NCBI RefSeq assembly: GCF_009765995.1
Contig: NZ_LMUI01000048.1
Span: 248,001-312,000 of the forward strand
DNA from: Methylocapsa sp. S129
GTDB taxonomy: Bacteria; Pseudomonadota; Alphaproteobacteria; Rhizobiales; Beijerinckiaceae
Length of the DNA: 64,000 nucleotides
Direction: 5' to 3'
Below the pieces are notes generated by a model. It did not search any database, was not told where the DNA came from, and saw only the letters and a program-made list of their open reading frames with translations. The translations under genes were made by a program, and so were the position numbers. Of this stretch, positions 7,957-60,861 are shown in pieces (within the stretch, counting starts at the first letter, position 1; every line of letters begins with the position of its first letter).

Positions 7957-9389
7957 GCATGATCGCGGTTCGCTGCTTCGAAGGCCGCAAGGTCGCGCTG
8001 TTCGGGCTCGGAGGCTCAGGCCTCTCGACCGCGCGCGCGCTTGTCGCCGGCGGCGCCGAGGTCGCGGCCTGGGACGACAATGCCGGCGCGCGCGCGCGAG
8101 CGAGCGCCGCGGGAATCGCGATCGTCGATCTCGCCGCCGCCGATTGGAGCGCTTACGCGGCTCTCATCCTCGCGCCCGGCGTGCCGCTGACCCATCCTAA
8201 GCCGCATTGGACGGTGGAGCGCGCCAAGGCGGCGGGAATCGAGATCATCGGCGACATCGAATTGTTCTGCCGGGAACGCGCCGCCCTTGCGCCGCGCGCG
8301 CGCTTCGTCGCCATCACCGGCGCCAACGGCAAATCGACGACGACCGCTTTGCTCGCCCATATCTTGCGCGAGGCGGGGCGCGATGTGCAGATGGGCGGCA
8401 ATATCGGTGTGCCGATCCTCGAACTGGCGCCGCCGTCCGAAAACAGCATCCACGTCATCGAATGTTCTTCCTTCCAGATCGACCTCGCGCCTTCGCTCGC
8501 CCCGAGCATCGGCGCGCTTCTCAACATCACGCCCGATCACCTCGACCGGCATGGGACGCTCGAAAACTACGCCGCAATCAAGGAGCGACTTGTCGCGCGC
8601 GCTGATGTTGCGCTGATCGGCGTCGATGACGCGCCATGCCGTGCTATCGCAGCCCGGTTGCAGGCGAGCGGCGGTCGCCCGCGCGTCGTCACGATTTCCG
8701 CGCTTGCCTCTTCCGTCAGCGACATTGCTGTCGAGGACCATCGCATTCTCGCGCGTGGGCCGGAGGCGATGACCGCTTCTCTTGATTTACGCGACGCGCC
8801 GGCCCTGCGCGGAATTCATAACGGGCAGAACGCCGCTTTCGCCTTCGCCGCCGCGCGCATGCTCGGCCTTAGCCTCGATGAGATCGCGCGCGGCCTCGCC
8901 TCCTTTCCCGGCCTCGCCCATCGCATGGAGCAGGTCGGTCGCCTCGGCCGCGTCCTGTTCGTCAATGATTCGAAGGCCACCAACGCCGACGCCGCTGAAA
9001 AGGCGCTGCTGTCGTTCGAGGATATTTTCTGGATCGCCGGCGGCAAGGCGAAGGAGGGCGGCATCGAGCCCCTGCGCGCGCTCTTTCCCAGAATCGCCAA
9101 GGCCTATCTGATCGGCGCGGCGAGCGACGCATTCGCGCGTACACTGCAGGGTAGCGTGGCCTTCGAGCGTTGCGAGACGCTTGATGTCGCCGCGGCCGCC
9201 GCCACCCGCGACGCGCAGGCGAGCGTCGCCGCCGAGCCTGTGGTGCTGCTGTCGCCGGCCTGCGCCTCCTACGATCAGTTCGCCAATTTCGAACAGCGCG
9301 GCGACAGGTTCCGCGCTTTGGTCGCTGATTGGATCGCGGCGCAAGCGCCTTCCGCAACCAATGCTGAGATATCAAGGAGCCGCCCATGA
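7953..9389 (+). CDS. murD: UDP-MurNAc-L-alanine:D-glutamate ligase MurD
   Basis: Cytosolic ligase adding D-Glu to UDP-MurNAc-L-Ala. 478 residues from GTG 7953 (overlapping mraY as GTGA); ATG 7959 two codons on is an equally good start. Motifs are the N-terminal Rossmann-like [13 protein letters not shown], the ATP loop [20 protein letters not shown] in the central domain, and [12 protein letters not shown]. Ends ATGA-overlapped with ftsW, with AAGGAG a few bases before the ftsW start. Confidence 0.97.
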
Positions 9390-53174: not shown

Positions 53175-54035
53175 ATGATCCCATCTTCCCCCGCCCTGGC
53201 GCAAGCCTACGCCCATTGCGAGACGCTGACGCGCGATCACGATCGCGACCGTTGGCTTGCCGCGCTTTTTGCGCCGGCCGATGCGCGCCTGCATCTCTAT
53301 GCGTTGACCGCCTTCTCCTATGAAGTCGGCCGCCTGCGCGATTTTGTGCGCGAGCCTCTGGCGGGCGAGATGCGGCTCGAATGGTGGCGCGAGGCTTTGA
53401 CAGGGGCAGGGCGCGGCGAGGTCGCGGGCCATCCCGTCGCCGCCGCTTTGATCGATACGATCGAGCGCTTCAGCCTGCCGCTGCAGGCCTTCGACAACCT
53501 GCTCACGGCCCGCATGTTTGATCTCTACGATGATCCGATGCCGAGCCTGAATGATTTCGAGGGCTATTGCGGGGAGACCTGTTCGGTGCTGTTCCGGCTT
53601 GGCGCGCTTATTCTCGGGCAGGGGCGCGATCTCGGCGGCGCCGATGCGGCCGGCCATGCCGGCGTCGCTTACGCGATGGTCGGGCTGCTCAGGGCGCTGC
53701 CGCTGACCAGCGCGCGCGGACAAGTCTATCTGCCGGCCGATATTCTGGCCCGTCACGGCGTCTCCCGCGAGGATATGGCGGCGCGGCGCGACGGCCCGGG
53801 CCTGCGCGCGGCGCTCGCGGAATTGCGCGGTCATGCGCGTCGGCATCTCGACGCGGCGCGTGGCCTCACCCCGCAGGCGCCCGCCGAAATCGCCCCCGCC
53901 TTCCTGCCCTTGGCTGTTCCGCCGCTCTATCTCGCGCGGATGGAGCGCGCCAACTATTCGCCCTTCGGCGCCGTCGTCGAGGCGCCGCAATGGCGCCGCC
54001 AATGGGCCTTGTGGCGCGCCGCGCGCGGGCGATAA
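53175..54035 (+). CDS. Squalene/phytoene synthase family protein, NDUFAF6-like
   Basis: 286 residues from ATG 53175 (MIPSSPALAQAY); upstream in-frame sequence overlaps the cupin gene. All-helical isoprenoid-synthase fold. Where head-to-head prenyl synthases have Asp-rich DxxxD sites, this one has EVGRLRDFVREP and YCGETCSVLFRLG, as in NDUFAF6-type members linked to complex I assembly. The block GEMRLEWWREAL is typical of that branch. Carotenoid or squalene synthesis is therefore unlikely. Confidence 0.85.
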   Translation: MIPSSPALAQAYAHCETLTRDHDRDRWLAALFAPADARLHLYALTAFSYEVGRLRDFVREPLAGEMRLEWWREALTGAGRGEVAGHPVAAALIDTIERFSLPLQAFDNLLTARMFDLYDDPMPSLNDFEGYCGETCSVLFRLGALILGQGRDLGGADAAGHAGVAYAMVGLLRALPLTSARGQVYLPADILARHGVSREDMAARRDGPGLRAALAELRGHARRHLDAARGLTPQAPAEIAPAFLPLAVPPLYLARMERANYSPFGAVVEAPQWRRQWALWRAARGR

Positions 54036-54107
54036 AACCGGCAATGGAATAGCCTGGGAATAGCCCGAGCCCCCGAATGACCCGACATGGCGCGCCAAAA
54101 TCGCTGC

Positions 54108-54175
54108 TAAGTCCTTGATTCTCGCTGTCCCGGAAGGTCGCGAGCATCCGCGAAACGAGCGATATCAAGGGTTTG
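54108..54175. repeat. Imperfect palindrome related to 15941-16020
   Basis: Arms CTAAGTCCTTGATTCTCGCT and, reading the opposite strand at the right end, TCAAACCCTTGATATCGCTC. Shares TAAGTCCTTGAT and GATATCAAGG with the element at 15941-16020. Confidence 0.5.
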
Positions 54176-54296
54176 ACCCTCTTTGAGTTTCCAAATCGCA
54201 TTTTTTCGGCCAAACGGGGCCTGCGCGCCCTTCGGGCGATCGGGTTCCCAGGCTGACGGGATGAAGCGTGCAAGGCGTGGTCTATCCGTCTTTTGG

Positions 54297-54332
54297 AAAC
54301 GAGACCAACGGCTCATGCGATAAGAGCCGTTG
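54297..54332. repeat. Hairpin repeat, GAGACCA-linked type, copy 1
   Basis: AACGGCTC (54307-54314) and GAGCCGTT (54324-54331) form an 8-bp perfect stem with a 9-nt ATGCGATAA loop. The flanking AAACGAGACCA and internal GCGATAA-AGCC recur in the right arm of the element at 54605-54716. Confidence 0.6.
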
Positions 54333-54604
54333 AAAAGCTTCGCCAATTTCTGACCATCCGCGGCGCCCCGCAAATTTTTTTCTGACCACTTCGTGGAATT
54401 TCAAAGGGTTGCAAGGGGGAAAATCGAAAAAAAGTTTTCGACCGCGCCGCGCCGCCCTGCGCGTCGGCGAGGCGACGATCCCCCCTCGGCCTCGCTTGCG
54501 CGGCGCGCGGCTGGACGGCGGGCTTCACTCATGGCTTCGCTTCCTGCTTGATGAAAACAAGAATTCATCATAGCATTGATTCAGTTTTTCAGAAAGGTAT
54601 TCCC

Positions 54605-54716
54605 GGCTCTTATCGCGTTAGCTGTCGTTTTCCCCCAGGGCGACGTTTGGCTTGGAAAACCGGGTTGGCTGGATGAACTGAGAAAAACGAGACCAGCAGC
54701 TAACGCGATAACAGCC
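54605..54716. repeat. Long inverted repeat, GAGACCA-linked type, copy 2
   Basis: GGCTCTTATCGCGTTAGCTG at 54605-54624 is matched in inverted orientation by 54697-54716 at 19 of 20 positions, about 70 bp apart. The right arm is preceded by AAACGAGACCAG as in the copy at 54297. Confidence 0.7.
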
Positions 54717-54807
54717 AAAATGTCGCTCTAGCTTTGGCCAAGGCGCGTGGATTTCAATCGGCGGCCCAGGGGGAAGTTGGGGCGCATGGCGAAGGCGGAT
54801 TGGGCCG

Positions 54808-54917
54808 CGTCATTGCGAGGGAGCGAAGCAATCCAGACTTTGGCTCCCGCAGCCCTCGTCTGGATCGGTTCTCAAGGCGAGCGCGAAGCGTTCGTCCGAC
54901 AGCCGCTCGCGATGACG
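54808..54917. repeat. REP-like CGTCATTGCGAG element
   Basis: CGTCATTGCGAGGGAGCGAA at 54808, reaching AATCCAGA at 54837, is mirrored by CGTCATCGCGAG on the other strand at 54917-54906. The motif is familiar as a dispersed palindromic repeat in many proteobacterial genomes. Confidence 0.6.
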
Positions 54918-54923
54918 GGCGAA

Positions 54924-55136
54924 CTATTCGCCGCCGCCGCGCCCGAAGAGGGCTTCGACGCCGAGCGCCGCAATCTCGATGACGAGCACCGCGATCAGGA
55001 CGCCCGCCGCCGCGCAGGCGAGATGCGGCAGCGCGGGAAACCGCGCTTCGAGCCAGGCTTCGAGTTCGAGGCCGGCGCCCTTGGCGATGAGACTGCGAAG
55101 GAGGGCGGCGGCGAGGAGGGTGAGGAAGGCGACCAT
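54924..55136 (-). CDS. Small membrane protein of unknown function
   Basis: About 70 residues from ATG 55136 (MVAFLTLLAAALLRSLI), with GGAGAA six bases upstream. Two hydrophobic segments (about residues 1-15 and 43-62) and a Gly-rich end. No family recognised. Lies between the repeat field and the DGR. Confidence 0.5.
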   Translation of the reverse strand: MVAFLTLLAAALLRSLIAKGAGLELEAWLEARFPALPHLACAAAGVLIAVLVIEIAALGVEALFGRGGGE

Positions 55137-55363
55137 CGGGGTTCTCCGTGAACGTGATGGCAACCCAGTTTTCACACGGCGCGCCGCCTTGAAAGAACAT
55201 TGCCCCGCCGCGTTCCGTCTTGTTCTGGCGACTTCGGCGCGATTTGAGGCTTGTGGCGGCCTCCGATAGCCGGCCTGGCGGTACGTGACGGAAACAGGCC
55301 GATAAATGTCGGTGCGGTGGCCGACGAACTCGGCTAGCATTTCCCCAGTCGTTATTTGCTGAA

Positions 55364-56302
55364 TTGTGGGCGATGGACTCCGAACAGGCGAAGAAACCGA
55401 GGAGACCTTGGGGGCGGTGGAGCCCGCAGACTTGGGTCGATCGGTCGGACACGAGCCGGCGTATCAAGAGCGTTGGTGGTAGCGAAGTCGACTGCGCGAC
55501 ACACTTGGGTGTCAGGCGTAGTACTTTTCGATACTGGTTCGACGACCGCAGCAACCATAAGGGTTGGATCCCAAAGGCGCTGGAACCGAAACTGGACGAA
55601 TATTTGAATGGCCTGGGCCATTCATCCGAGGTCGAGCCGGCGGTTTCAGACGATAGTGCGGACGGAGTTGCCTCGAAGCGGCGCAATCGCCCTCTTATCG
55701 AACTGCACGCCGATATCGCCGACGTAAAAATTCGAGAACTCGCGACCTGCGCGTTCCGTCGAGACAATTTGCAGCCGCAACCGGAAGGCGATCCGATTTC
55801 CATCGACTGTCACGTCAACGTGCAAACGATCCCGACATGCCGCGGCGTGCAGATCGGCGTTGGGCAGTTCTCGCTGTTCGTCGATCCGGATCCGGGCCGG
55901 CGTGGCGTTTGCCGTCCGCCGGCAATGGATAGCCAGGTTCCCGGAGTCAAAATCACGAGAAGAGGGACGCCAGATGGTCTGCATGTGGTTTTCGAGAACG
56001 AAGGGTCGCCAACGGGGCCATTGCTGCTGAACGGCCTCGCGCCCGCCATTCCTCTGGGGTTTTATGACCAAGCCCGCGCGGGGGAAATGCTGACGATCAG
56101 GATGGTCGCTTCGTTCGACCATGATTTCGTCTGTGTGCGAGCCCCATCGGAAGGCCAGTCCGTTTCGCACAGCCAAAGCATGAATCGGAAGCAGGTAATC
56201 TATCATTTGGCGAAACGCGCGAATCTGGGCGTTCTCGCCGATGACGGCTATGTCACGCTGGTCGTCCAGATGTTGAGCATTAAGAGAGCGGAGCCGGAAT
56301 GA
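55364..56302 (+). CDS. Unknown protein coupled to the DGR target gene
   Basis: 312 residues from GTG 55364; ATG 55373 (MDSEQAKKP) is an alternative and neither has a strong ribosome-binding site. Residues 40-60 (DCATHLGVRRSTFRYWFDD) resemble a helix-turn-helix. The remainder is mixed, with a central Pro/Asp-rich segment and a C-terminal region near HDFVCVRAPSEG. I do not recognise the family. The stop overlaps the start of the variable target gene (ATGA), so the two are probably made in fixed ratio and may interact. Confidence 0.75.
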   Translation: MWAMDSEQAKKPRRPWGRWSPQTWVDRSDTSRRIKSVGGSEVDCATHLGVRRSTFRYWFDDRSNHKGWIPKALEPKLDEYLNGLGHSSEVEPAVSDDSADGVASKRRNRPLIELHADIADVKIRELATCAFRRDNLQPQPEGDPISIDCHVNVQTIPTCRGVQIGVGQFSLFVDPDPGRRGVCRPPAMDSQVPGVKITRRGTPDGLHVVFENEGSPTGPLLLNGLAPAIPLGFYDQARAGEMLTIRMVASFDHDFVCVRAPSEGQSVSHSQSMNRKQVIYHLAKRANLGVLADDGYVTLVVQMLSIKRAEPE

Positions 56303-57471
56303 TCGCGAGCGACTGTGGCCGAATGTCTGTGGGCGACCTTGAGGAACGCATTGACGCCATTGATAATTCGGCCGTCGAAGACTTCGTTGAGCTCATTCGC
56401 TTGGCGGGTCTGAACCCAACGTATGAACTGCGTTTCGGCGACTTCTCAGGCTGCCGTTTCGACGGGCAGGACTTGCGGGGTTTCGGCTTCACAGGTTGCG
56501 ACTTGACGAACGCAAGCTTCAAGGGCGCGCGAATCGAGCGGGCGGAGTTCGATTGCGCGACGATGCAACTCGCGACTCTCGCTGAGGCGGCGGATTTCGA
56601 TAACTATTTGAAAACGGAGATGACGCGCCGATGGAAAAGTCGCTTTCCGCTCAACGCGCGTCGTCTCCGCGACCTCGCCATCTTCCGCGAAGCCCCCTTC
56701 GCCCCGGAAATGGTCGTCCTGCCGGCCGGCGAATTCGCCATGGGGTCCGCTCTCGGCGACGCGGAACTTCCGGAAGACGACAAGGCCCGGGACGATGAAA
56801 TTGCGCCAGGCCTCGGCAAGCGGCGGACGCGGATTCCGCGACGCTTCGCGATGGCCCGCTATCCCGTCACTTTCGAGGAATATGACGTTTTCACCGATGC
56901 AACGGGGCGCAAGCGCGTCCCGCACAGCAATTGGGGACGCGCGCGGCGCCCCGCGATCAACCTAAGCTGGAGCGACGCGCAGGCCTATGTCGCCTGGCTG
57001 AACGGCAAGCTCGGCGGCAAGGCCTATCGGCTGCCCTCGGAGGCGGAATGGGAATATGCCTGCCGGGCGGGGACGGACACGCGGCGCTGGTGGGGCGATG
57101 CCTGGGACGCCGCGCGCGCCAACGGCGCTCGAAGCTTCGAGGGCGGGCGGACGTCGCCGGTCGGTCATTTTGCGCCCAACGACTGGCAATTGCACGATAT
57201 GATCGGCAATGTCTGGGAATGGTGCGCGGACGAATGGGCCGACAATATCGCGAAACTGCCGGAGGATGGCGCGGCTTTCGGCAAGCTCGTCCGCGAGACT
57301 CACCCAAAACAGATACCTGATGTCAAAAAGAACAAGAATAGGGCCCTGCGGGCTCTGCGCGGCGGTTCCTGGTACGGCGATCCGAGGGGCCTCCGCTCGG
57401 CGAATCGCGGCAGGTGCGAGCCGGGCGATCGCTTCGACTACATCGGCTTTCGCCTCTCCAGGACGCTTTAA
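56299..57471 (+). CDS. DGR target: FGE-sulfatase (C-type-lectin-like) domain variable protein
   Basis: 390 residues. Residues 1-40 are helical. Residues 45-90 look like pentapeptide repeats (FDGQDLRGFGFTGCDLTNAS). From about 130 an FGE-sulfatase domain follows: MVVLPAGEFAMGS, MARYPVTFEEYDVF, NLSWSDAQAYVAWL, LPSEAEWEYACRAG, MIGNVWEWCADEW, and GGSW at 355-358. The last 43 residues (348-390) lie in the variable repeat; residues 359-381 hold the mutable positions. The paired catalytic cysteines of true formylglycine-generating enzymes are not visible, so it is probably a ligand-binding protein. No signal peptide is seen, so a cytoplasmic location is likely. The ligand is unknown. Confidence 0.93.
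   Translation: MIASDCGRMSVGDLEERIDAIDNSAVEDFVELIRLAGLNPTYELRFGDFSGCRFDGQDLRGFGFTGCDLTNASFKGARIERAEFDCATMQLATLAEAADFDNYLKTEMTRRWKSRFPLNARRLRDLAIFREAPFAPEMVVLPAGEFAMGSALGDAELPEDDKARDDEIAPGLGKRRTRIPRRFAMARYPVTFEEYDVFTDATGRKRVPHSNWGRARRPAINLSWSDAQAYVAWLNGKLGGKAYRLPSEAEWEYACRAGTDTRRWWGDAWDAARANGARSFEGGRTSPVGHFAPNDWQLHDMIGNVWEWCADEWADNIAKLPEDGAAFGKLVRETHPKQIPDVKKNKNRALRALRGGSWYGDPRGLRSANRGRCEPGDRFDYIGFRLSRTL
57340..57467 (+). repeat. DGR variable repeat (VR)
   Basis: 128 bp at the 3' end of the target gene, collinear with the template at 59075-59202 (offset 1735). By eye 18 positions differ: 17 opposite TR adenines (12 to G, 5 to T) and one T-to-G at 57462 near the 3' end. Changed codons include 359 (AAC to TAC), 360 and 364 (AAC to GGC), 373 (AAC to TGC) and 379 (AAC to TTC). 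The 25 bp from 57443 on show no adenine change and should hold the initiation site (IMH). Confidence 0.97.
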
Positions 57472-57506
57472 TTCCTGATTCTTTATGTCTTTTCTTCAAG
57501 CGGGGT

Positions 57507-57523
57507 CCGGGGCGCAGCCCCGG
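57507..57523. other. GC hairpin downstream of VR
   Basis: CCGGGGC (57507-57513), GCA loop, GCCCCGG (57517-57523), 40 bp after the VR. DGRs often have a hairpin/cruciform just downstream of the VR that aids homing; this one is farther away than in phage BPP-1 and could instead be a terminator or common repeat. Confidence 0.45.
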
Positions 57524-57634
57524 CCACTATTCTTGGCGTTCCGGAACGTGTGCAAATGTTGATTATTTTGTTTCGCGCCTGTTCGGACTGGCTAAAATTG
57601 AACCGCATACGGACGAATCGGCGAGAGTGATCGT

Positions 57635-58006
57635 TTGGGACACGCGGGATCTGCGGACAGGAAAGTCAGCCCGGCGCTGGAAGCGTTGAATGGCTTCATT
57701 CGCTGGCTCGTGCCGACCGTTGAGCGCTTTCCCCGAAGCCAGAAGTTTCTCCTTGGGGACCGTATCCAGGCGACGGCGTTGGATGTTCTCGATCGCCTCA
57801 TCGAGGCGACTTACACAAAGGCGCGACAGGCGCATCTGCAAAGCGCCAACCTTGGCGTCGAGAAATTGCGCCACCTCTTCCGAATCGCCGTCGATCTGCG
57901 CTTTCTCGACCAGGATCGTTTCGAGTTTGCGGCGAGGGCGCTCGATGAAATCGGCCGCATGATTGGGGGGTGGGCGAGAAGGGACCGTGCCGAACATGCC
58001 GCCTGA
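57635..58006 (+). CDS. avd: DGR accessory variability determinant Avd
   Basis: 123 residues from TTG 57635; no later Met is usable before the core. All-helical, with IRWLVPTVERFPRSQKFLLG and DRIQATALDVLDRLIEA characteristic of the Avd/four-helix (23S rRNA IVS-like) family. Avd forms a basic pentamer that binds the DGR RT and RNA and is needed for cDNA synthesis. Lies 163 bp after the target and overlaps the RT start by 11 bp. Confidence 0.9.
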   Translation: MGHAGSADRKVSPALEALNGFIRWLVPTVERFPRSQKFLLGDRIQATALDVLDRLIEATYTKARQAHLQSANLGVEKLRHLFRIAVDLRFLDQDRFEFAARALDEIGRMIGGWARRDRAEHAA

Positions 58007-59273
58007 CACGCTCGATTTCCGTCGCGCCGTCAGTTTCCGCGCGTTGCGCCCGGCGGCTCTGCGCGCCGCGCGCGGCAAACGGAGAAGCCCGGGCGTCACA
58101 GCTTTTCTGGCCGATCTGGAGACCGAGTGCCTGCGTCTGGAGCGAGAATTGCTGGCGGGGACGTGGCGTCCCGGCAAATATGTCGCGTTCGAAATTCGCG
58201 ACCCCAAGCCGCGCATCGTTTCCGCCGCCGCGTTTCGCGACCGGGTCGTGCATCATGCGCTTTGCGCCGTCGTCGAGCCCGTGTTCGAGCGCGGCTTCAT
58301 CTTCGATTCCTACGCCAACCGCAGGGACAAAGGCACTCATGCCGCCATCGATCGCTACGAGCAGTTCGCGCGCCGCAACGTACATGTGCTGCGCTGCGAC
58401 ATCTTTCGATATTTCCCCGCCATCGACCACGAAATTCTGAAGTCCGACCTTCGGCGCAGGATTGATGACAACCAAATCCTGACCGTCCTGGACGCGATCG
58501 TCGACGGCTCGAATCGTCAAGAGCCGGTCGATGTCTACTTCCCAGGCGACACGCTGTGGGCGCCCTACGAGCGGCGGCGCGGGTTGCCGATCGGCAATTT
58601 GACGAGCCAGTTTTTCGCCAACGTCTATCTCGACCCGCTCGATCATTTCGTGAAGGAAGTGCTGCGCGTTCGCGGCTACCTGCGCTACGTCGACGATTTC
58701 GCGCTCTTTCACGACGATCTGGAAACGCTTTGCGGTTGGCGAATCCGTATTGAAAAATTTCTCGCCGGCCGCCGACTGTTGTTGCATCCTCGTAAGACTG
58801 CGGCAGTGTCCACGCGGGAGCCGTCGGCCTTCCTCGGCATCGTCTTGGCAAATGACGGGCGTCGCCGATTGCCGGAAGACAATGTAGCGCGATTCCGTGG
58901 CCGCTACCGCGCCATGCGCGACCGGTTCAACGCCGGCGCGGTCACGTTCGAAGAGATCGCGCCGCGCGTTCGGGCTTGGATCGCACATGCCGAACATGCC
59001 GACACCTGGCGCTTGCGTCAGACCCTCTTCCGCGGCGGTCCTTTCGAATCGTCGCTGAAGCCTGACGGTCCCCAAAGGCCCTGCGGGCTCTGCGCGGCGG
59101 TTCCTGGAACAACAATCCGAGGAACCTCCGCTCGGCAAATCGCAACAGGAACGAGCCGGACAATCGCAACGACAACATCGGCTTTCGCCTCTCCAGTACG
59201 CTCCCATCATGCCGGAGCCGCGCCGTCCAAGGACGGCGCGGGCGCGCGAGGAAGCGTCCAGGGGCCGTCATGA
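57996..59273 (+). CDS. DGR reverse transcriptase
   Basis: About 425 residues from ATG 57996 (AAGGGA about 11 bases upstream); GTG 57987 and TTG 57963 are in-frame alternatives. RT motifs: [19 protein letters not shown] (motif 2), [14 protein letters not shown] with catalytic D135, G196-LPIGNLTSQ205 (the DGR-type SQ motif 4), and Y231-VDD234. Motif 4 with SQ separates DGR RTs from group II intron and retron enzymes. There is no maturase or endonuclease domain. The last part of the frame (about residues 360-402) overlies the TR in another frame, so the C-terminus is unconserved in sequence. It makes mutagenised cDNA by misreading TR adenines. Confidence 0.96.
59075..59202 (+). repeat. DGR template repeat (TR)
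   Basis: 128 bp, unmutated donor of the VR, lying 3' in the cassette inside the end of the RT frame (offset +2). It contains 31 adenines, of which 17 differ in the current VR. It is built of AAY codons (ten of the 23 codons 59108-59176 are AAC or AAT) which adenine changes can turn into many amino acids with few stops. Order is VR-avd-RT-TR. Confidence 0.96.
59218..59241. other. Hairpin immediately after TR
   Basis: CCGCGCCGTCC (59218-59228), AA, GGACGGCGCGG (59231-59241): an 11-bp perfect stem starting 16 bp after the TR. May stabilise the TR RNA or aid priming. No T-tract, so not a typical terminator. Confidence 0.5.
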
Positions 59274-59283
59274 CAGGAAGTAA

Positions 59284-59321
59284 CCCCGCCTGACGTTGGT
59301 CCTCGCGGCCGTCAGGCGGGG
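59284..59321. terminator. Inverted repeat at the end of the DGR, possible terminator
   Basis: CCCCGCCTGACG (59284-59295) and CGTCAGGCGGGG (59310-59321) form a perfect 12-bp stem with a 14-nt loop, just after the RT stop and 43 bp from the convergent gene. No T-run follows. Confidence 0.4.
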
Positions 59322-59364
59322 CGCTTGCGCGATAACGGCGCCGAGAACGCATCCATCCAGCCTC

Positions 59365-60525
59365 TCACCGGTTGATCGCTAGATAAGCCTCCGCCACCGC
59401 CGCATCGATGTCGGCCGGCACGGGGACGACGCAATGGCCGGGGCCGATTCCATGCGCCACCCGCTCCAGGCAGCGCGCCTGCAGCGTGAACCCCAGATCC
59501 ATCGATTCCACGGAATTGCCGAGCGGGCGCGGTCCCGCGAGATTGGCCATATGCCCTTCGCCCAGCACATGGATCGTTCTGCCGTCGCTGAAGCGAAACG
59601 TCTCGATGCCCTCGGAGGGATAGCGCATCGTCTCGACGACGCTTTTGTCGGCGGCGATCGCCGCGACGGCGATCTCGTGCGGCAGATGGCCGCCGTTGAT
59701 CAGGATCGCGCCGTCTTTCAGCAAAGGCAGATCGATGGCCGTGATGATATCAGGCGCGCCGGTGACGGTGACGAGCACATCGGCGCCGCGGATCGCCTGT
59801 TCGCGCAACGGCGTGGCGAATCCGTCGAGATGCGCCTCAAGAGTCGTCACGGGATTGACGTCGACGACGCTGACCACGCTATAGGCGTTGCGAAAGCAGG
59901 CGGCGACGCCCTTGCCGCAGGCGCCATAGCCAAAGACCGTGACGCGTTTGCCGTTGGTGCTGCGGTTGGTGAACCGCATATAGCTCTCGAACAGGCTTTG
60001 GCCGACGGCGTGCCTGTTCTCGGCGAATTGCTTGATCGGACTGTCGTTGATGACGAGAACGGGAACCTTGATCGCGTCTCTCAGCGGCGCCAGGCGGGCG
60101 CGGCCGGATGTCGTCTCTTCCGTGCCGCCGCGCAGCGCGGGATAGCCGCGTTCCGCGACGCGCGCGAAGAGGTCGCCGCCATTGTCGAGCAGCAGGTCGG
60201 GCTTTTCGGCGAGAATGGCGTCGAGGAAGCGGCCATGCGCGGCAGCGTCGGTCGTCTGCTCGCCAATGACCGCGATATCGTGGGCGCTGAGGTACGCGAT
60301 CGTTTCAGGCTGCGTGCTGTTGAGATTGCCCGTCGCGACAAGGCGCGCGCCGCCCGCTTGCAGCGTCGTCAGCAGCGCCGCCGTCTTCGGCTCAAGATGG
60401 ATCGCCGTGCCGATCGTCAGGCCGGTGAAGGGCCGGGTCCGCGCGAATTCGGCCGCCGTCGATTGCAGCAGGCGGCAACTTGAAGCGATCCAGTCGATTC
60501 GCGTCTTGGTTTCGGATGGCGGCAT
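59365..60525 (-). CDS. S-adenosylhomocysteine hydrolase-like protein (divergent)
   Basis: 386 residues, shorter than bacterial AhcY (about 430-470). The NAD-binding motif GYGACGKGVA, a DNGGDL near residue 113, and NDSPIKQFAEN near residue 160 align with SAH hydrolases. The active-site Lys is kept but the Asp that follows four residues on is replaced by Glu. The C-terminal KPxHYRY segment, which completes the neighbouring subunit's cofactor site in AhcY, is absent. Probably a paralogue with different function, so I give no symbol. Confidence 0.78.
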   Translation of the reverse strand: MPPSETKTRIDWIASSCRLLQSTAAEFARTRPFTGLTIGTAIHLEPKTAALLTTLQAGGARLVATGNLNSTQPETIAYLSAHDIAVIGEQTTDAAAHGRFLDAILAEKPDLLLDNGGDLFARVAERGYPALRGGTEETTSGRARLAPLRDAIKVPVLVINDSPIKQFAENRHAVGQSLFESYMRFTNRSTNGKRVTVFGYGACGKGVAACFRNAYSVVSVVDVNPVTTLEAHLDGFATPLREQAIRGADVLVTVTGAPDIITAIDLPLLKDGAILINGGHLPHEIAVAAIAADKSVVETMRYPSEGIETFRFSDGRTIHVLGEGHMANLAGPRPLGNSVESMDLGFTLQARCLERVAHGIGPGHCVVPVPADIDAAVAEAYLAINR

Positions 60526-60861
60526 GGGGGACGGGCCTTTGTCGAGAGGACGAGCGCGCGCAGCGAGTCAGGGCGAACGCCCTGCCAATCTGAGGCGAAC
60601 TCATGAGAAGTGAGATGGAGGTTGAGGCAGATGTGTCCATTGTTTGCTTGGCGGAGCGGAGCGCGAGAGGAATTCGAAGTCAAGGATCGCCTTTAGGCGA
60701 CCGCCGAAGGCGGCGGCCCCATAGGGCGTCGAAAGACGCCCGTCACAAGCGACGGGCTTTGGGGCCGTCCTTGAGTTCGAATTCCTCTTGCGCATAATCG
60801 CCTTCAAGCAATCAATGGATGCGTGGCGCTGAGCCCAGCGCAGACCGCCTTCGTTCGGGCG
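60526..60861. other. Intergenic region between AhcY-like gene and trmFO
   Basis: 336 bp, largely occupied by the palindromic element at 60636-60819. No convincing gene. The minus-strand frame across it is simply the palindrome read through. Confidence 0.6.
60636..60819. repeat. Large composite palindrome with ncRNA-like folding
   Basis: Outer arms start TCCATTG(T/A)TTGCTTG at 60636 and on the other strand at 60819. An inner arm AGAGGAATTCGAA-TCAAGGA at 60666-60686 pairs with 60768-60788 at 20 of 21 positions. Inside are four compact hairpins: TCGCC/GGCGA (60687), CCGCC/GGCGG (60701), a GGCCCC/GGGGCC closing stem (60715/60761) and GGGCGTC-GAAA-GACGCCC (60724-60741, a GNRA tetraloop). A structured RNA or MITE/REP-like element is possible. 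Confidence 0.65.

What the first reader, a model, noticed from the sequence alone, without database searches (positions are those of the whole stretch)
55364..59321. Complete diversity-generating retroelement
A target gene with a VR at its 3' end, an Avd-like gene, a DGR-type reverse transcriptase and a TR lie in one cassette on the plus strand. The VR (57340-57467) and TR (59075-59202) align collinearly over 128 bp. By eye, 17 of 18 mismatches are at TR adenines, and the RT has [10 protein letters not shown] and YVDD. This is the sequence signature of targeted adenine mutagenesis, so the target protein is likely hypervariable.
Basis: partly seen in the sequence, partly recalled or inferred. 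Interest (0 to 1): 0.95.

Follow-up and report, generated by a model that had tools for sequence, protein, structure and literature searches.

The report
Diversity-generating retroelement with embedded RNA
A bacterial chromosome carries a cassette built to randomise one gene by error-prone copying of an RNA template, and comparison with relatives suggests how the copied DNA may recognise the gene to be rewritten and leave the template alone.

Summary
In detail: VR 57340-57467 and TR 59075-59202 differ at 18 of 128 positions, 17 at TR adenines (P 7e-12). A target gene (pentapeptide repeats plus FGE/C-type-lectin domain), Avd and a DGR-branch reverse transcriptase are present. The cassette lies in a 5.3 kb segment absent from one genus-mate. 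As a DGR it is ordinary; a TR overlapping the RT ORF is also described (DiGReF group 3).

Beyond the finding: the TR runs into a structured RNA (59180-59276) that matches no Rfam family but is shared by relatives from five phyla. The TR 3' end pairs with a downstream core (36 sequences, 91% of cells paired, many compensatory changes). One position of the TR strand is mismatched in 36 of 36. There VR, not TR, complements the core in 27 of 27 loci with a usable VR (24 G-C, 3 A-U). It is the one non-adenine difference here.

I propose that pairing of VR with the RNA primer strand sets the direction of transfer. That step is inferred, fits BPP-1, and was not seen in most other DGRs tested. Two key BPP-1 papers were not held, so novelty is unproven.

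The parts
55364..56302 (+). upstream ORF (312 aa) overlapping the target start by 4 bases; unknown, perhaps an operon partner; not a DGR core part
   Evidence: no Pfam, NCBIfam or PADLOC match; no homologue in 10 genus-mates; single-sequence model useless (pLDDT 35.5)
56299..57471 (+). target gene: pentapeptide repeats (residues 48-84) plus FGE-sulfatase/C-type-lectin domain (135-386) with the VR at its 3' end
57340..57467 (+). variable repeat (VR)
57461..57468 (+). VR 3' junction (IMH), GGACGCTT; G57462 is the polarity base, complementary to C59258 of the RNA core
57502..57523 (+). GC-rich inverted repeat after VR (7-bp stem, GCA loop), counterpart of the BPP-1 target-site hairpin
   Evidence: the 22-base pattern occurs once in the genome
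57635..58006 (+). Avd
   Evidence: NF033474 E 3.1e-31, bAvd E 1.3e-18
57963..59273 (+). DGR reverse transcriptase ORF; the part shared with relatives ends near 59072, the rest is read-through of TR and RNA
59075..59202 (+). template repeat (TR), inside the RT ORF in another frame than the VR uses
59198..59203 (+). 5' strand of helix P1 (ACGCTC, TR 3' end, IMH*); T59197 just before it is the fixed mismatch
59218..59241 (+). hairpin A between the P1 strands
   Evidence: 10 pairs, 95.3% of cells paired, 9 pairs with double changes
59252..59260 (+). RNA core: P1 3' strand AAGCGT, polarity partner C59258, C59259 and conserved A59260, the proposed priming adenosine
   Evidence: comparison with BPP-1
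59180..59276 (+). whole match of covariance model R1 (the window is one of its training sequences)
   Evidence: 86 bits
59284..59321 (+). hairpin B (12-bp stem) downstream of the core; 3' end of the cassette
   Evidence: the 70 bases after the core fold with z -2.8 in the window; hairpins also in relatives

Best explanation
A DGR that diversifies the C-type-lectin (FGE) domain of one protein. A transcript of the RT region carries the TR followed by a folded RNA. The TR 3' end (59198-59203) pairs with a core (59252-59257), which brings a conserved adenosine (59260) next to the template, so that the Avd-RT complex starts cDNA there, with errors opposite adenines. The cDNA replaces the VR, rewriting up to 29 adenine positions. 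The primer strand (core) mismatches TR at one base (T59197 against C59258) but pairs with VR there (G57462), so the RNA-primed cDNA fits VR and not TR; this keeps the transfer one-way. Shown: the TR/VR adenine pattern, the genes, the covarying RNA, the fixed mismatch and the VR-core covariation. Inferred: transcription, priming at A59260, retrohoming, and the role of the polarity base. The protein's function is inferred from relatives: a variable sensor, perhaps in a conflict system. The confidence below is for the DGR with its TR-core helix; the polarity step alone I put at 0.4.
For: Adenine pattern P 6.8e-12. RT in the DGR branch 99/96; best sequence match among solved structures is 8ub7, nine entries named 'Reverse transcriptase' (recalled as the BPP-1 complex). 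Avd above its curated cut-off. RNA: 26 sequences (25 distinct), 94.5% of cells paired against 75.2% in shuffles and at most 42.3% in slid controls, 76 double-change cells against 21.5; 36 sequences, 88.2% against 63.9%, 133 against 34.9. RNAalifold gave helix, mismatch and outer pair unasked. Model R1 also hits L025, L028 and L043, which it was not built from; L025 and L028 have the TR upstream of the RT. VR base complementary to the core in 27 of 27 loci and 34 of 34 VRs; 24 G-C and 3 A-U loci, Fisher 3.4e-4. In L098 the core U was seen before its VRs were read, and both VRs have A. BPP-1 fits. Target homology to PvdO, FGE and Treponema TvpA.
Against: The minimum-energy fold of the window's own RNA does not contain the TR-core helix; it rests on covariation. 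In the window one of the six P1 pairs is a mismatch (C59203-A59252; one search gives 5 of 6). With 36 sequences the number of pairs with double changes (14) was reached by 18 of 500 shuffles. Relatedness inflates the counts: L006 and L009 are from one organism, and the VR-core switch may be only two events (L007 with L024, and L098). Opposite the proposed priming adenosine VR follows TR, not the core, so VR is not a plain copy of the primer. In BPP-1 the TR has another pairing of 7 bases with the spacer, shifted by three. L043 and L044 do not fit the rule, L046 and L047 only one base shifted. The strict motif was found at p < 0.02 in 3 of 27 other DGRs; a looser test gave 6 of 28 below 0.05, the window among them, combined P 0.0027. 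No expression or variation data.
Confidence: 0.87

Rival explanations
1. The DGR is a relic: parts intact by eye, but no longer active, and the VR-TR differences are old.
For: Broken cassettes exist in other genomes: Avd running into a TR tail without RT (L083) and a TR tail without RT (L087). Only one of ten genus-mates has the RT.
Against: The ORFs are open and the RT motifs intact, the RNA scores 86 bits, and VR differs from TR at almost nothing but adenines; a dead copy would gather other changes.
Confidence: 0.15
2. The RT C-terminal tail encoded by the TR is a real protein domain, and conservation after the TR reflects protein, not RNA.
For: The RT ORF runs through the TR in 14 of 19 loci, and several tails end alike (SVQGRS or SVQGRP).
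Against: By my reading of the tails the 14 use three frames (10, 3 and 1), and 5 of 19 RTs stop before or within the TR; base-pair covariation explains the conservation; the element also follows a TR that lies upstream of the RT (L025).
Confidence: 0.05
3. The VR-core complementarity is a by-product: the RNA primer base is copied into VR at each homing event, so VR matches the core without recognising it.
For: It would give the same perfect covariation and the same picture in BPP-1.
Against: Two bases further in, VR follows TR (A or C) and not the complement of the conserved core A, so at most the first one or two primer bases could be copied.
Confidence: 0.35
4. The RT is a group II intron or retron-like enzyme and the repeat is unrelated.
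For: The best NCBIfam profile is group_II_RT_mat, but at 112 bits against a cut-off of 300.
Against: Tree, IGNLTSQ motif, Avd, adenine pattern.
Confidence: 0.01

Closest known systems
Bordetella phage BPP-1 DGR (prototype)
   Same: Avd, DGR RT, adenine-specific TR/VR differences, hairpin after VR, and an RNA after TR with a strand that pairs over ten bases (one G-U) with the VR end while TR is mismatched at one of the first bases
   Different: TR lies before brt with a separate spacer; phage tail target; RT 32.8% identical
DiGReF structural group 3, TR overlapping the RT ORF (PMC3521204; section 13 and passages read)
   Different: that section describes gene order and holds order to be irrelevant to the mechanism; no RNA element is described in it
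Clade 5 cellular DGRs with FGE/CLec sensors (PMC10907252; abstract, section 6 and passages read)
   Same: cyanobacterial RTs, which that paper puts in clade 5, are next to the window's branch; relatives' targets join FGE to TIR, nSTAND1, kinase or caspase domains. That the window is clade 5 is inferred
   Different: this target has pentapeptide repeats and no effector domain; one DGR in the genome
Hairpin/cruciform after VR (PMC3240598; passages read)
   Same: GC-rich stem of 7 bp shortly after VR
   Different: 3-base loop (GCA) instead of the 4-base GRNA loop described for phages
Treponema denticola TvpA (2y3c)
   Same: variable FGE-type C-type lectin; sequence E 2.3e-10, fold match
   Different: not the closest: PvdO (5hha) ranks first in both

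Membership tests
Diversity-generating retroelement | TR/VR repeat pair with differences at TR adenines | tested here: met
   17 of 18 at A, P 6.8e-12
Diversity-generating retroelement | RT in the DGR lineage with (I/V/L)GxxxSQ motif | tested here: met
   tree: 36 DGR RTs, the window's included, on one side of a branch, 99/96; IGNLTSQ in the sequence
Diversity-generating retroelement | Avd or other accessory protein | tested here: met
   NF033474, 107.8 bits against cut-off 80
Diversity-generating retroelement | VR in the 3' part of a C-type-lectin-fold gene | tested here: met
   FGE-sulfatase E 5.5e-50; fold matches to FGE and TvpA from a model of modest confidence, mean pLDDT 64
Diversity-generating retroelement | IMH at the VR end and hairpin after it | tested here: met
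   strict hairpin rule met by the window and by 19 of 37 segments in all
Diversity-generating retroelement | mutagenic retrohoming in cells | not testable with these tools
   needs culture or reads
BPP-1-type DGR RNA (spacer priming cDNA) | 3' RNA pairing with the TR end | tested here: met
   covariation; not in the single-sequence fold
BPP-1-type DGR RNA (spacer priming cDNA) | cDNA joined to an internal adenosine | not testable with these tools
   a conserved YCA at the matching place; priming itself untested
Group II intron RT or retron | RT in those branches, QGxxxSP-like motif | tested here: not met
Rfam RNA family | match at or above gathering score | tested here: not met
   none of the 7 matches listed for 57300-59500 reached its family's gathering score

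The most novel reading that the evidence does not exclude
In this DGR lineage, and in BPP-1, the choice of recipient is a base-pairing code: the primer strand of the template RNA pairs without a break with VR but has one obligatory mismatch with TR. One base sets the direction of transfer, protects the template, and could be rewritten to aim the system at another site.
Probability: 0.4. Interest if true: 0.75.

Novelty: new member of a known kind. Interest (0 to 1): 0.5.

Why it matters
A 2026 paper (PMC12875486, passages read) says that how the mutated cDNA enters the VR is still incompletely understood. The rule found here gives a concrete, single-base test of that step, and the covariance model finds the template RNA of related cellular DGRs even where gene order differs. 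If it holds, it tells which base decides what is rewritten, useful for directed evolution with harmless laboratory genes.

Tried and rejected
Protein function of the TR-encoded RT tail: rejected, because three frames are used and some RTs stop earlier. Hairpin after VR as a common repeat of the genome: rejected, one copy. Generality of the VR-core rule to all DGRs: not shown. A first, unanchored test was not decisive (window p 0.07; L053 significant for TR and VR alike, away from the junction). Anchored at the first non-adenine mismatch it gave VR combined P 0.0027 and TR 0.77 over 28 loci. The strict motif was found at p < 0.02 in 3 of 27 (BPP-1, L028, L045), weaker in 6, and not at all in 18; the anchor was set by script and is wrong for at least L055.

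Rows dropped or mended: one search picked a wrong position or core in L011, L019, L024 (one row), L025, L027, L043, L044, L046, L047 and part of L021, and found no core in L017, L020 and L023; one search used fixed alignment columns instead. In one search six loci had no usable VR (L012, L019, L026, L027, L031, L032), L096 was off by one column (one search shows T, G and C there), and for L085 the script took a wrong core site (one search shows the right one); L085 and L096 are among the 27. L004, L025, L028, L045 and L090 were not; of these L025, L028, L045 and L090 fit. For L022 the script used a wrong repeat; I counted it from its coordinates. A VR for L083 was sought in its genome and not found. 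The fold of the upstream ORF failed. Model hit L089 (29.8 bits) has no DGR part that I could see nearby and is probably chance.

Papers: searches and 117 of the held PubMed Central library listed no title or abstract start that describes a conserved structured RNA in cellular DGRs or VR-primer complementarity; of the papers listed I looked into seven (PMC3521204, PMC6642488, PMC8144416, PMC12875486, PMC8867640, PMC3240598, PMC10907252), by passages or named sections only. The two papers most likely to bear on this (Handa 2018 and the 2025 structure paper, both recalled) are not held, so I cannot say that it is unpublished. The BPP-1 priming nucleotide 'A56' is recalled; that an internal spacer adenine primes is from PMC12875486.
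Full report
WHAT WAS CLAIMED AND WHETHER IT IS THERE. The window (C59:248001-312000 of a 6.87 Mb genome) holds the cassette as described. VR 57340-57467 and TR 59075-59202 align without gaps. Of 18 mismatches 17 lie at TR adenines (12 A>G, 5 A>T); 18 positions drawn at random from the 128 would do this with P 6.8e-12. The adenine changes replace 11 residues of the target, 9 of them asparagines of the template. Target, Avd and RT are supported by profile matches. The TR matches the genome only at itself and at this VR.

RT PLACEMENT. In a tree of 46 RTs (36 DGR, 5 group II, 5 retron-like), DGR RTs form one side of a branch with support 99/96; the window's RT is sister to that of its genus-mate G004 (L004) and sits in a branch of 16 rows whose records come from five phyla (Pseudomonadota, Acidobacteriota, Nitrospirota, Binatota, Latescibacterota; many are metagenome bins). 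Five loci that I meant to add (L027, L033, L036, L057, L063) gave no row because my motif filter missed them, and L010 gave only a fragment.

GENOMIC SETTING. Of 150 genomes searched, the own one included, two have this RT: the own one and G004. In genus-mate G010 the two genes that flank the cassette here are about 60 bases apart, while in the window 5,343 bases lie between the aligned parts (54026-59368). G010 is the only one of the ten genus-mates with the right-hand flanking gene, so the empty site rests on one genome; an insertion here is likelier than a deletion there. In G004 the cassette is followed by other sequence. The window has no tRNA gene.

THE TR INSIDE THE RT ORF. The RT ORF reads through the TR to 59273. 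Among 19 loci with a TR found downstream of the RT (L006 and L009 are from one organism), 14 read through it whole and 5 stop before or in it (L006, L009, L014, L016, L019). The tails show three different frames, so the tail is most likely a by-product. TR overlap with the RT ORF is a described arrangement (PMC3521204, section 13 read).

THE RNA AFTER THE TR. Sequence after the TR is shared by the relatives: a GC-rich hairpin, a core like GAGCGTCCAGG, and CATGATGA. An alignment of 26 sequences and a structure of 16 pairs gave 94.5% of cells paired, against 75.2% in shuffles and 36.0 to 42.3% when the partner strand is slid. RNAalifold gave the same structure without prompting, with an unpaired position between two paired ones. 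With 11 further sequences and one near-duplicate left out (36 in all), 91.2% of P1 cells and 95.3% of hairpin A cells pair, with 133 double-change cells against 34.9 in shuffles; the number of pairs with double changes, 14, was reached by 18 of 500 shuffles. No Rfam family reached its gathering score. A covariance model (R1) found the element in loci it was not built from: L025, L028, L043 and L044 (E 6.6e-10, 1e-6, 3e-5, 0.0017). In L028 the model's match starts 18 bases past the TR end found by my scan, though the TR end itself also pairs with the core (6 of 6). In 385, 398 and 397 genomes of class, phylum and order (sets overlap) R1 matched 7, 7 and 5, own genome included: 18 places outside the own genome. 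Twelve have a DGR RT on the same stretch; five are at contig edges or show only parts of a DGR (L083, L087, L088, L093, L100), and one, L089, looks like chance. A second hairpin follows the core; by my reading 18 of 24 folds show a three-base bulge in it, the window not.

ONE FIXED MISMATCH, AND WHO REPAIRS IT. In the TR the position before P1 is never complementary to its partner in the core: 0 of 36. At that position VR differs from TR, and in the window it is the one non-adenine difference. In 27 loci with a usable VR (34 VRs), the VR base is the complement of the core base in all 27; TR is not, in all but one row that was off by one column (L096). In 24 loci the pair is VR G with core C, in three (L007, L024, L098) VR A with core U; Fisher P 3.4e-4, not corrected for relatedness. 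L098's core was seen and its VRs only; L025, its sister in the tree, has C in the core and G in VR, so the double change happened within that pair. Of related loci outside the table, L028, L045 and L090 fit, L046 and L047 fit only one base shifted, and L043 and L044 do not.

COMPARISON WITH BPP-1. In the phage the spacer segment TAGGTGGTCA pairs over ten bases, one of them G-U, with the VR end. In that register TR is mismatched at the polarity base and pairs at 5 of the next 6 (p 0.017). TR also has a pairing of 7 bases with the same segment shifted by three, so the register is not settled by sequence alone. The spacer reads UCA where this clade reads CCA or UCA. By recall, the last A is the nucleotide from which cDNA starts; PMC12875486 (passages read) says that an internal adenine of the spacer primes at IMH*. 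PMC3240598 (passages read) says that a stretch of IMH with mismatches to TR determines the direction of transfer. The present data suggest why: the primer strand matches VR.

LIMITS. The strict motif was found at p < 0.02 in 3 of 27 other DGRs, BPP-1, L028 and L045; in 18 it was not found. A looser test over 28 loci, the window included, gave VR P 0.0027 and TR P 0.77, with 6 and 1 loci below 0.05. The rule is thus well supported for this cellular branch and fits BPP-1, but is not shown for DGRs at large. VR follows TR two bases inside the polarity base, so VR is not simply a copy of the primer. The minimum-energy fold of the window RNA alone does not show P1.

THE TARGET. It matches PvdO, FGE and TvpA by sequence and by a modest model. 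Of ten relatives' targets scanned, chosen from 44 ORFs listed, all ten have a C-terminal FGE domain; further domains are TIR in 4, nSTAND1 in 2 (one of these also TIR), a kinase in 1 and a caspase-like domain in 1, and 3 have none. I had picked some of them because their N-termini looked like TIR or NTPase domains, so the share is not representative. This agrees with the sensor idea of PMC10907252. The window's target has pentapeptide repeats and no effector, so its role is open.

VERDICT. A genuine, ordinary DGR; the RNA element and the polarity rule raise its interest.

Noticed in passing
55364-56302: ORF of 312 aa overlapping the target start by 4 bases, without family match or homologue in 10 genus-mates or in the DGR loci held at that point.
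   Followed up: partly
54297-54716 and 60661-60793: Direct and inverted repeats (D7, I5, I14, I3) on either side of the cassette, which might be traces of mobility.
   Followed up: no
L083, minus strand near 7958-8461: A frame with Avd-like sequence runs straight into the TR tail with the RT missing: a decayed or deleted DGR.
   Followed up: no
L087:3183-3275: RNA element with a short TR tail and no RT found in 6.1 kb.
   Followed up: no
L100:2261-2354: RNA element directly after the VR-like end of an FGE target gene, with A and U at the polarity pair.
   Followed up: no
VR downstream regions of several loci (L005, L007, L010, L011, L018, L022, L097 and others): A tract like TCTTTACCTCTTTACC follows the VR in many, and hairpin loops of three bases are frequent, of GNA type in the window and some others.
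   Followed up: partly
G000:C38:262565-263593 and G000:C59:490975-491934: The same genome has a group II intron RT (over the cut-off) and an RT with a sub-cut-off match to a retron RT family.
   Followed up: no
L022 and L021: L022 has further exact repeats besides TR and VR, and L021 several VR-like copies of one TR on one contig.
   Followed up: no
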